A stretch of DNA of 64,000 nucleotides from contig NZ_CP024047.1 in assembly GCF_003430825.1 (NCBI RefSeq), positions 310,001 to 374,000 on the forward strand, given 5' to 3'. Numbering within the stretch: position 1 is the stretch's first letter; every line of letters starts with the position of its first letter. Made by a program: the position numbers and the translations under genes. Source of the DNA: Natrarchaeobaculum sulfurireducens (GTDB lineage Archaea; Halobacteriota; Halobacteria; Halobacteriales; Natrialbaceae). The notes beneath the pieces are model-generated. The model ran no database searches. It was not told the DNA's origin and worked only from the letters and a program-made list of their open reading frames with translations. Below, one piece after another: positions 51,628 to 54,180 of the stretch.

Positions 51628-51740
51628 AGTACGTGTTAGCAGTCGTGGTGGTAAAAACGTCCGTCAGACGGTCCTATGGCGCTTCACACCGAGACGACGA
51701 CCACGGGGTCTTATACGTTCGAACCCGTAGAGCGTATCAA

Positions 51741-52244
51741 ATGTTCGACGAGATCATGGAGAAATTCGAGGGGTCGCCGAGCCAGCAAGCGGTGATCCGA
51801 CTGCTCCTCGAGCGCGGATTCTCGGTCAACGACGACGGCCGGGTCGTCTCCGGTGGCATCGAGATTCCGAACACGGGAATCGCACGAGAGATCGACGTCG
51901 ACCGCCGGGTCGTCGACTCGACGACGGACGTCATCCTCGAGGATCCCGAACTCCGTCGTATCTTCCAGAACATCTCGCAGGTGCCGAGCCTGATGGACCT
52001 CGCTCCCGTGCTCGATCTGACGGTGCTGACGATCACGCCCGTCGACGCCGAGCGCAAGGGAATCGTCGCCGGGATCACCGGAACGCTGGCCGACCACGAC
52101 GTCTCGATCCGTCAGACGATCAGCGAAGATCCCGAGTTCACCGACGAGCCGAAACTCTATCTGGTGACCGATCAGGATCTTCCCGGTGGGTTGATCACCG
52201 AAATTCGCGACCTCGAGTTCGTCCGCAAGATCGAACTCCAGTGA
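51741..52244 (+). CDS. ACT-domain regulator of amino acid metabolism
   Basis: The 167-residue protein has an N-terminal helix-turn-helix-like part (SPSQQAVIRLLLERGFSV, VSGGIEIPNTGIAREIDVDRR, described by their ends) and a C-terminal ACT domain (LTVLTITPVDAERKGIVAGITGTLADHDVSIRQ, described by its ends). It matches the archaeal COG2150-type predicted regulators of amino acid metabolism. The ligand is likely an amino acid, unknown which. The ATG at 51741 is the natural start. hisB, serA and metX in the window are possible targets, but nothing in the sequence proves this. Confidence 0.83.
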   Translation: MFDEIMEKFEGSPSQQAVIRLLLERGFSVNDDGRVVSGGIEIPNTGIAREIDVDRRVVDSTTDVILEDPELRRIFQNISQVPSLMDLAPVLDLTVLTITPVDAERKGIVAGITGTLADHDVSIRQTISEDPEFTDEPKLYLVTDQDLPGGLITEIRDLEFVRKIELQ

Positions 52245-52353
52245 CCACCTCGACACAGTGGGTTGGGTCGGTATACCGTCGGACAGCAGTCACCGAAGAC
52301 AACTCGCTCACAAGGGCGGTGAACGTTTTTAGCTGAAAGAGAGGGCGCTAAGC

Positions 52354-52398
52354 CCCCGTCCTCAAGGAGCGAGGGGAAGCCGAGCGAGTAGGGCGGGG
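52354..52398 (+). repeat. Left-end hairpin of the TnpB element
   Basis: Eight paired bases (one T-G) enclose a 29-nt loop that contains CTCAAGGA and GAGTA. It lies 80 bp before the tnpB ATG. Confidence 0.7.
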
Positions 52399-52477
52399 AT
52401 ACAGTGCCCGCACGATTCACAACCAATTCTACTCAATACTCTTAACTAACCACAACCACTAGTAGGCGACAAGTCGC

Positions 52478-53746
52478 ATGGAGTACAGTCCACGATACCG
52501 ACTCTTTCCAACGACCGAGCAACGGGAGAGTCTCGACTGGACGAGAGACACCGTGCGACAAGTCTACAACCACGCACTCCACGAATTCAACCAAATCCCC
52601 GAAGACGGAGGCACGCTCCGACAGCGCGTCTGGAAAGTCCGAGACGACTTACCACAAATCAAGCAATGGTGGACTGACTTGAAACAAGTCTACTCTACTG
52701 TCTTGCAGAAAGCTGTCGAACGCATCCGCACCAACATCAACAATCTCGGTAAGCTGAAAGCCAAGGGCTATGATGTTGGTTCGTTGAACTGGAAAGCGCC
52801 GCGTGAGTATCGGAGTTTCACGTATCGGCAATCGGGCTTCGAACTCGACACGAAGAGTGGCCCACGAGACCGTGCGATACTCCGTTTGAAGAAAGTCCGC
52901 GGTGAAACGCTGGAGATTCCAATCCGACTCCACCGTGACCTTCCAGAGCATGATGCTATCAAGGAAGTCACAGTGAAGAAAGAACCTACGGGAGCGTGGT
53001 ACGCCTCGTTCTGCATCAGTACCGCCGAACCCGAGAAACCTGTTCCAGAAAACATCGGCGCTGAAGATACTGTAGGAATCGACCTCGGGGTCCTCAACTT
53101 CATTCACGACTCAGACGGTCGTTCCATCAGGCGACTCGACTTCTCCGACGAGCGAGAGCGACTCGAACGCGAGCAACGCTCGCTCTCTCGCAAACAGTAC
53201 GAGTCGAACAACTGGGAGAAGCAGCGCCGTCGCGTTGCCGAGGTTCACGCTCGGATGTCGAACAAGAAGCGAGATTACAAGCACAAGCTCGCACACTTCT
53301 ACGCGACGGAGTACGATGCCGTGTTTGTCGAGAACCTTAATGTGAAGTCGATACTAGAAGGTGATGGCAACGCTCGGAACAAGGCTGAAGTTGGGTGGGG
53401 TGAGTTCAGAGCGATTCTCGAACACCACTGTGAGAAGCACGGCACGCACTACGTTGAGGTGAATCCGAGAGGTACAACGAAAGAGTGCGCGTCGTGTGGG
53501 GCGGAAACCGACAAACCGTTATGGATTCGGGAACACTCGTGCCCTTCCTGCGGGTTCGAGACTGATAGGGATTGGAACGCAGCGCTGAACGTGAAGTCAC
53601 GTGGATTGTCGAAACTAGGAGTGGTTCACTCCGAATCAACGCCTGTGAAGACTGCGACCGCTGTGGACTCTGTTACAGTGTCTGCAAGTCGCGTCGTCGA
53701 AGCAGGAAGCCCCTGCCTCAAGGAAGCCGCGTCAGCGGCTGAGTAG
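52478..53746 (+). CDS. tnpB: TnpB RNA-guided endonuclease (IS1341 type)
   Basis: The 422-residue protein has the full TnpB layout: an N-terminal recognition region (MEYSPRYRLFPTTEQRESLD), and a split RuvC nuclease with D202 in GIDLGVLNFI, E285 in AVFVENLNVKSI and D365 in DRDWNAALN. The zinc-finger-like motif CASC...CPSC has cysteines 337, 340, 355 and 358. All catalytic residues are intact. Without tnpA, it cannot move itself by the usual route but can keep the element by nuclease action guided by an omegaRNA from its right end. GC content and codon use are lower than in neighbouring genes, indicating transfer. Confidence 0.9.
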   Translation: MEYSPRYRLFPTTEQRESLDWTRDTVRQVYNHALHEFNQIPEDGGTLRQRVWKVRDDLPQIKQWWTDLKQVYSTVLQKAVERIRTNINNLGKLKAKGYDVGSLNWKAPREYRSFTYRQSGFELDTKSGPRDRAILRLKKVRGETLEIPIRLHRDLPEHDAIKEVTVKKEPTGAWYASFCISTAEPEKPVPENIGAEDTVGIDLGVLNFIHDSDGRSIRRLDFSDERERLEREQRSLSRKQYESNNWEKQRRRVAEVHARMSNKKRDYKHKLAHFYATEYDAVFVENLNVKSILEGDGNARNKAEVGWGEFRAILEHHCEKHGTHYVEVNPRGTTKECASCGAETDKPLWIREHSCPSCGFETDRDWNAALNVKSRGLSKLGVVHSESTPVKTATAVDSVTVSASRVVEAGSPCLKEAASAAE

Positions 53747-53753
53747 GCAGGGG
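53710..53753 (+). ncRNA. Right-end hairpin and probable part of the omegaRNA
   Basis: The 8-bp outer stem and 5-6-bp inner stem with GTCA loop overlap the tnpB stop codon (TAG at 53744-53746). In IS200/IS605 elements the guide RNA is transcribed from the tnpB 3' end and right end, with the guide taken from the flanking sequence beyond the element. The stem is direct observation; the RNA role is inference. Confidence 0.5.
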
Positions 53754-53778
53754 TAGTTCACAGTTCTGTCCGACAGCA

Positions 53779-54180
53779 TCACTCCTCGATAGCTTTCACC
53801 TCGTGGTCCTCGAGGACTAACTCGAGGGCGCTCGTCAACTCCTCGAATCGATCCATCGACATGTCGTCGGTCGTTACCCAGACGCCGTGGTCGCCCCGGA
53901 TCACTCGTGAGAGGTACCCGTTCTCGAACATCCGAATCGTCGCGCCGTACTCGCCGAGTTGGGTGTTTCGGTAGGCCGACTGGGAGTGAAAGCCGAGTCG
54001 TTCGTGTTCGGCGAAGCCGACGAGGTCGGCGGTCTGATCCAGGTCCGACCGGAGATAAAGCTGTTCGACGTCGTCGTCGTCGGTGAAGTAGGTAATGCTC
54101 CGGAGTTCGTCGCCGACGGCCGTCCGACAGACGGATACCAGTTCGTCCGCGAGCGGTTGATCGATTGCGTCGCCGTCCAT
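53779..54180 (-). CDS. Small haloarchaeal protein of unknown function
   Basis: The 133-residue product is acidic with alternating alpha and beta stretches (LRSITYFTDDDDVEQLYLRSDL, IRMFENGYLSRVIRGDHGVWVTTDDM, described by their ends) and no signal or membrane segments. I recall similar conserved haloarchaeal proteins that have only a DUF assignment, and cannot name a function. The ATG at 54180 is chosen over 54312 since the extension is arginine/serine-rich. It lies just beyond the TnpB element. Confidence 0.76.
   Translation of the reverse strand: MDGDAIDQPLADELVSVCRTAVGDELRSITYFTDDDDVEQLYLRSDLDQTADLVGFAEHERLGFHSQSAYRNTQLGEYGATIRMFENGYLSRVIRGDHGVWVTTDDMSMDRFEELTSALELVLEDHEVKAIEE

What the first reader, a model, noticed from the sequence alone, without database searches (positions are those of the whole stretch)
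52325..53762. Intact TnpA-less TnpB element whose ends fold alike and overlap the stop codon
The TnpB keeps D202, E285, D365 and all four zinc cysteines, which argues against decay. The left and right hairpins have near-identical arms and share CTCAAGGA and GAGTAGG, and the right hairpin encloses the stop codon. TnpB of IS200/IS605 is known to be an RNA-guided nuclease whose omegaRNA comes from the 3' end. So this small unit could encode both nuclease and guide scaffold. That the protein and RNA are active here is inference.
Basis: partly seen in the sequence, partly recalled or inferred. Interest (0 to 1): 0.6.

Follow-up and report, generated by a model that had tools for sequence, protein, structure and literature searches.

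The report
Haloarchaeal TnpB transposon with built-in guide RNA
This is a small, structurally intact jumping element of a salt-loving archaeon whose single gene encodes a DNA-cutting enzyme and whose last 145 bases also form the RNA that should guide it; this class is known and very common in these archaea, but the element's exact ends, its target motif and a likely protein-binding kink in the RNA are now pinned down.

Summary
The element is 52333-53761 (1429 nt), between target TTAG (52329-52332) and its own end TTCAC. Three relatives' insertion sites have matching empty counterparts, and two 97%-identical mini-elements in the same genome align exactly from TTAG to TTCAC. D202, E285, D365 and the four zinc cysteines are invariant in 50 intact relatives. 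Codons 1-372 are under protein selection (median pS 0.55, pN 0.09). The last 50 codons are under RNA selection (pS 0.25, pN 0.17) and fold into a conserved 145-nt RNA with 11 compensatory pairs. A covariance model of that RNA also finds the left hairpin (E 8.5e-6). The stop codon inside the hairpin is a family habit: relatives stop at either of two TAGs in the right end. Best reading: an IS200/IS605 TnpB-only (IS1341-type) element encoding an RNA-guided nuclease and its omegaRNA, mobilised in trans. A cognate TnpA exists in 15 of 125 family genomes, not in this one. This is a known kind, with RNA matches in 246 of 292 haloarchaeal genomes. New details: predicted TAM TTAG; a kink-turn consensus in 36 of 37 right and 33 of 44 left hairpins, predicting L7Ae binding; no Rfam match. 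Expression, cleavage and movement are untested.

The parts
52329..52332 (+). TTAG: target tetranucleotide left of the element; predicted TAM for the TnpB
   Evidence: Sequence upstream of it is random across copies while sequence downstream is conserved (the count there required TTAG, so it is not independent); empty sites read TTAG directly joined to the right flank (L033 vs L102, L066 vs L106; TCAG in L131); own-genome mini-elements align from TTAG.
52333..53761 (+). Whole element, 1429 nt, no target duplication
   Evidence: Boundaries from copies in different sites, empty sites in related genomes, and two congeners with the flanking genes adjacent and no element.
52348..52351 (+). CTAA just 5' of the left hairpin, complementary to the TTAG target; candidate left guide sequence for TnpA
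   Evidence: Sequence itself; position as in IS608-type ends; some relatives have CCAA instead. Inference.
52354..52398 (+). Left-end hairpin with kink-turn consensus C-AAG-GA ... GA-G-T and a second tandem GA/GA
   Evidence: Covariance-model match, 30.2 bits, E 8.5e-6; consensus in 33 of 44 distinct left hairpins.
52478..53746 (+). tnpB, 422 aa; RuvC-type D202, E285, D365; zinc cysteines C337, C340, C355, C358
   Evidence: NCBIfam guided_TnpB 266 bits vs cut-off 100; Pfam Cas12f1-like_TNB, OrfB_IS605, HTH_OrfB_IS605; ISDra2 TnpB chains E 1.7e-28; dN/dS about 0.1 in the body.
53617..53761 (+). omegaRNA (reRNA) scaffold, overlapping the last ~43 codons of tnpB; true 5' end not known
   Evidence: 30-sequence alignment, 40 pairs, 96.8% of cells paired, 11 pairs with compensatory change, covariation 0.234 vs 0.109 shuffled (0/500); reduced synonymous divergence in the tail.
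53706..53708 (+). GAA 5' of the right hairpin, pairing with TTC of the TTCAC end; candidate right guide sequence for TnpA
   Evidence: Pairs in the RNA and DNA folds. Inference as to role.
53709..53754 (+). Right-end hairpin with kink-turn consensus (C53719, loop AAG 53720-53722, GA 53723-53724, GA 53741-53742)
   Evidence: Fold z -5.2; consensus in 36 of 37 distinct right hairpins while the inner stem is replaced wholesale; covariation in outer and inner stems.
53744..53746 (+). tnpB stop codon TAG inside the right hairpin
   Evidence: 25 of 67 elements including this one stop at this TAG, 24 at the TAG of GGGGTAGTTCAC, 5 in the loop.
53757..53761 (+). TTCAC, right terminus of the element
   Evidence: Conserved to this base in the aligned right ends, then random flank; L097 has GTCAC.
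53762..53777 (+). Predicted 16-nt guide, AGTTCTGTCCGACAGC, from the flank
   Evidence: By analogy with ISDra2 reRNA, whose last ~16 nt come from the flank (PMC8612924); no TTAG-guide site elsewhere in the own genome at up to 3 mismatches.

Best explanation
A structurally intact TnpB-only (IS1341-type) element of the IS200/IS605 family. Its one gene makes an RNA-guided RuvC nuclease. The 3' end of the same transcript, from about 53617 through TTCAC and on into the flank, is the omegaRNA whose guide is the flanking DNA. The RNP would cut the empty donor site TTAG + flank after excision, so that repair from a sister copy restores the element. The two hairpins are also the ends that a Y1 transposase TnpA recognises as single-stranded DNA. 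This genome has no cognate TnpA, so movement needs one supplied in trans. Shown: ends, protein family, conserved RNA fold, selection pattern, empty sites. Inferred: transcription, RNP formation, cleavage, TAM use, trans-mobilisation.
For: Family calls (5, 6, 69, 88); invariant catalytic and zinc residues in 50/50 intact relatives, body pS 0.55 / pN 0.09, tail pS 0.25 / pN 0.17; RNA covariation with shuffle and slide controls; empty sites; near-identical copy (pS 0.01) in another genus, so recent spread; own-genome 374-bp mini-elements with the same ends, 97% identical; cognate TnpA with the same ends in relatives, including a congener; haloarchaeal omegaRNAs sequenced in Halobacterium (PMC12558985); ISDra2 precedent for TAM and flank-derived guide (PMC8612924).
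Against: No RNA or activity data for this organism. No cognate TnpA in this genome: the best of its three TnpAs is about 34% identical and the two whose element ends were read have other ends. Only one close copy in the genome, so no sign of recent movement here. The exact empty site of this copy is too diverged in the congeners to align base by base. The structure model is of middling confidence (pLDDT 66).
Confidence: 0.9

Rival explanations
1. A stranded remnant: protein and ends still look intact only because it arrived recently, but without a cognate TnpA it no longer moves and is on its way to decay.
For: No cognate TnpA in this genome; one close copy only; a decaying cousin with an internal stop in the same genome (L002); 13 of 67 elements are broken before the right end.
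Against: Body under strong purifying selection across relatives; near-identical copy in another genus; TnpB-less elements with the same ends have multiplied in this same genome, and Natrinema gelatinilyticum carries about 18 copies without a cognate TnpA, so lack of a resident TnpA does not stop spread in the long run.
Confidence: 0.3
2. A domesticated TnpB used by the host as a nuclease or RNA-guided regulator rather than as part of a mobile element.
For: Single full-length close copy, no adjacent TnpA.
Against: Congeners lack it at this site; both ends and the target are intact; active-site residues are kept, unlike nuclease-dead TnpB-derived regulators (from general knowledge); copies elsewhere sit between unrelated genes.
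Confidence: 0.04
3. The right-end structure is only a DNA hairpin for TnpA, and the apparent RNA conservation reflects DNA recognition.
For: The left hairpin shares the motif although it is not part of the guide RNA.
Against: Helices 1-4 (53617 to about 53709) lie outside the TnpA hairpin, have no left-end counterpart, and show compensatory changes; tail synonymous sites are constrained; omegaRNAs from the same position are sequenced in Halobacterium (PMC12558985).
Confidence: 0.04

Closest known systems
ISDra2 TnpB-reRNA of Deinococcus radiodurans (IS200/IS605)
   Same: RuvC and zinc residues, RNA from the 3' end of tnpB and the right end, flank-derived guide, target motif left of the element (PMC8612924; PDB 8h1j, 8bf8, 8exa at E 1.7e-28).
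   Different: No TnpA in the element; TTAG instead of TTGAT (the latter from general knowledge); about 25% identity; right hairpin with a kink-turn consensus; ORF runs through the whole RNA scaffold.
Halobacterium salinarum sotRNA / omegaRNA of IS1341-type tnpB (Gomes-Filho 2015; PMC12558985)
   Same: Sense RNA overlapping the 3' end of tnpB in a haloarchaeon, TnpB-linked, right-end hairpin.
   Different: The Rfam models said to cover those RNAs (RF02656, RF02657) do not match this window even at E up to 10.
IS605-type transposons and PATEs of Haloquadratum and Natronomonas (PMC3119063)
   Same: Near-terminal palindromes, no target duplication, 4-6 nt targeting sequence, many tnpB without tnpA, TnpB-less derivatives (PATEs) in the same genome, small mobile repeats that insert into them.
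   Different: That work predates the RNA-guided role and gives no RNA structure; this copy is a distinct family member from a Natrialbaceae-like genome.
Kink-turn RNAs tied to orphan OrfB elements in Pyrococcus abyssi (sRkB, sRkC; PMC3124441)
   Same: RNA related to the 3' end of an orphan tnpB with GA-type kink-turns.
   Different: L7Ae binding was measured there; here it is a prediction from consensus and conservation.

Membership tests
RNA-guided TnpB (IS200/IS605 OrfB) | TnpB profile above curated cut-off with full-length coverage | tested here: met
   NF040570 266 bits vs 100, residues 6-375, profile 2-389 of 389
RNA-guided TnpB (IS200/IS605 OrfB) | Intact RuvC D/E/D triad and CxxC...CxxC | tested here: met
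   D202, E285, D365, C337/340/355/358; 50/50 intact relatives
RNA-guided TnpB (IS200/IS605 OrfB) | Conserved structured RNA at the 3' end of tnpB ending at the element boundary | tested here: met
RNA-guided TnpB (IS200/IS605 OrfB) | RNA-guided, TAM-dependent cleavage | not testable with these tools
   Needs bench work
IS200/IS605 element, TnpB-only (IS1341) type | Subterminal hairpins, no terminal inverted repeats, no target duplication, fixed left target tetranucleotide | tested here: met
IS200/IS605 element, TnpB-only (IS1341) type | tnpB without tnpA in the element | tested here: met
   No TnpA in 52333-53761; three TnpAs elsewhere in the genome are not cognate
IS200/IS605 element, TnpB-only (IS1341) type | Relatives with the same ends that do carry TnpA | tested here: met
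   L179, L181, L186, L194, L197
Rfam sotRNA families RF02656 / RF02657 | Match to the covariance model | tested here: not met
   No match at gathering or at E up to 10
Kink-turn (L7Ae-binding) RNA motif | C-stem, 3-nt loop, tandem sheared G.A / A.G, NC-stem | tested here: met
   Sequence consensus only: 36 of 37 distinct right hairpins; the first C-stem pair is C-G followed by a bulged U
Kink-turn (L7Ae-binding) RNA motif | L7Ae binding or kinked 3D structure | not testable with these tools
   Needs gel shift or structure

The most novel reading that the evidence does not exclude
The haloarchaeal omegaRNA of this large subfamily carries a true kink-turn in its right-end hairpin, so the host ribosomal protein L7Ae is a built-in part of, or regulator of, the TnpB RNP. 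The same motif in the left hairpin would tie mobility (DNA hairpin read by TnpA) and guide RNA (read by TnpB and L7Ae) to one conserved sequence.
Probability: 0.35. Interest if true: 0.55.

Novelty: new member of a known kind. Interest (0 to 1): 0.36.

Why it matters
It gives exact ends, a predicted TAM (TTAG) and a covariation-supported omegaRNA model for a TnpB family that matches most haloarchaeal genomes sampled (246 of 292) and that current Rfam models do not detect in this window. That makes cleavage and interference tests in a tractable host such as Haloferax directly possible. The kink-turn prediction links TnpB guide RNAs to L7Ae, which was shown to bind transposase-linked RNAs in other archaea before anyone knew they were guides (PMC3124441).

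Tried and rejected
Rfam at gathering and permissive thresholds: no sotRNA or other credible hit. A pseudoknot GTGAA/TTCAC between about 53645 and the right end was considered: it fits this copy, but GCGGA or GCAGA variants break it in several relatives, so it is not claimed. The inverted match 52273-52286 / 53766-53779 was considered as a footprint of insertion; congeners are too diverged there to tell and it is probably chance. Looking for an exact empty site of this copy in congeners: flanks adjacent but intergenic sequence diverged. A first regex for the kink-turn was mis-anchored and replaced. The AF2 model is only middling (pLDDT 66), so its TM-scores (about 0.45) are supporting evidence only; the top matches are still TnpB structures. 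Domestication was considered and rejected.

Full report
What is there. The window is haloarchaeal: the family genomes searched as relatives and the named loci of close TnpB relatives are Natrialbaceae-type haloarchaea. Between a TrpY-family gene (51633-52244) and an unnamed small gene on the minus strand (stop at 53779) lies one ORF, 52478-53746, 422 aa. It scores 266 bits against NCBIfam guided_TnpB (cut-off 100), matches OrfB_IS605, Cas12f1-like_TNB and HTH_OrfB_IS605 of Pfam, and its closest natural solved structures by sequence are ISDra2 TnpB (E 1.7e-28; Foldseek top hits 8h1j, 8exa, 8iaz). D202, E285, D365 and C337/C340/C355/C358 are present and invariant in 50 of 50 intact relatives.

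Ends. Many close copies exist in related genomes, about 18 of them in Natrinema gelatinilyticum. Aligned at their ends, conserved sequence begins right after TTAG and stops after GTAGTTCAC; beyond that the flanks are random. The TTAG in that count was used to find the ends, so it is not independent evidence. Independent evidence comes from empty sites. Joined flanks of 13 copies were searched in 29 Natrinema genomes. L033 aligns without a gap across the junction ...CGATTAG|ACACGG... in L102, L042 likewise across its junction in L131 (TCAG there, one gap 28 nt upstream), and L066 from TTAG|ACGG in L106. In the window's own genome, two 97%-identical mini-elements align exactly from TTAG to TTCAC and no further. 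So here the element is 52333-53761, 1429 nt, with TTAG at 52329-52332 as target and no target duplication. Two congeners have the flanking genes adjacent without the element, though too diverged to align the exact site.

The RNA. An alignment of 30 right-end regions (53617-53761) has a consensus fold with six helices. 96.8% of cells are paired (34.8-48.9% when one side is slid), 11 pairs have compensatory changes, and the covariation score is 0.234 against 0.109 in shuffles, none of 500 reaching it. Codon analysis separates two regimes. In codons 1-372, median synonymous difference is 0.55 and nonsynonymous 0.09; in codons 373-422 they are 0.25 and 0.17. The body is thus conserved as protein, the tail as nucleic acid. 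A covariance model of this RNA finds the window copy at 173 bits, and the left hairpin at 52354-52398 with E 8.5e-6. In a sample of 292 genomes of the class it matches 246, so the family is ubiquitous. Rfam, including its sotRNA families, does not match.

Hairpins and stop codon. The two hairpins share CTCAAGGA and GAGTAGG and similar outer stems (13/15 identity in the 5' arm). Among distinct hairpins of relatives, 36 of 37 right and 33 of 44 left ones keep tandem GA/GA next to an inner stem that is itself replaced wholesale, often with a second GA/GA two pairs further in. C, a three-base loop, GA, stem, GA, G is the kink-turn consensus. L7Ae binding to kink-turn RNAs derived from orphan tnpB elements was shown in Pyrococcus (PMC3124441); here it is a prediction. 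The stop codon inside the hairpin is not unique: of 67 elements, 25 (this one included) end at the TAG of GAGTAG, 24 at the TAG of GGGGTAGTTCAC, 5 in the loop, and 13 are broken earlier. Inner-stem length sets the frame, so the right end supplies stops in more than one register and an intact ORF always spans nearly the whole scaffold.

Mobility. GAA before the right hairpin pairs with TTC of TTCAC in the fold and CTAA before the left hairpin is complementary to TTAG, which resembles the guide/cleavage arrangement of IS608-type ends (general knowledge; some relatives have CCAA). The genome has three Y1 transposases. The ends of two of their elements were read and differ, and all three are at most about 34% identical to the TnpA type whose elements share the TTAG...TTCAC ends and hairpins. 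That cognate TnpA (73% identity or more) occurs in 15 of 125 family genomes, including congener G003, but not in this genome, in Salinadaptatus (near-identical TnpB, pS 0.01) or in N. gelatinilyticum. The element is therefore complete in cis for ends, nuclease and guide, and depends on TnpA from elsewhere. The puzzle that such elements spread where no intact TnpA is resident was already noted for Haloquadratum (PMC3119063).

Verdict. It is an ordinary and widespread kind of element, but well resolved. Not shown: transcription, RNP assembly, cleavage, the TAM, L7Ae binding and transposition.

Noticed in passing
L223 and L224 (own genome G000:C3 near 1871.9-1872.3 kb and 1117.0-1117.4 kb): Two 97%-identical 374-bp elements with the same TTAG/TTCAC ends, both hairpins and an omegaRNA-like region (49 and 46.5 bits) but no TnpB; instead an 89-aa ORF running into the RNA. 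They look like PATEs with a solo guide RNA that could work in trans with a TnpB.
   Followed up: partly
L050 vs window (18 extra codons near window 53658); also L060, L065, L068, L076, L077, L078, L082-L084, L087, L094, L098; in reverse orientation in L040, L073, L088: A ~43-60-nt twin-hairpin module (CGTCC-hairpin-TGGGC-hairpin-GGACG/GAACG and variants) inserted at several spots of these elements, in frame in L050. A pattern for its main form hits 78 of 125 family genomes in both orientations (reversed-pattern control 0 in every genome listed), also outside tnpB. It resembles, but is shorter than, the small mobile repeats of Haloquadratum (PMC3119063); how it moves is unknown.
   Followed up: partly
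L226, own genome G000:C3:1208773-1208916: Another omegaRNA-like right end (37.8 bits) without a detectable TnpB match nearby, containing a variant of the twin-hairpin module.
   Followed up: partly
L093, L095, L096 and L094, just upstream of tnpB: Relatives carry small accessory ORFs in front of tnpB: a ribbon-helix-helix-like ~40-aa protein (L093, L095, L096) or a ~45-aa DUF2080-like protein (L094) instead of TnpA. Names are from eye, not from a search.
   Followed up: no
Natrinema gelatinilyticum, L025-L042: About 18 tnpB copies of this family in one genome, several broken by stops, with no cognate TnpA in the genome.
   Followed up: partly
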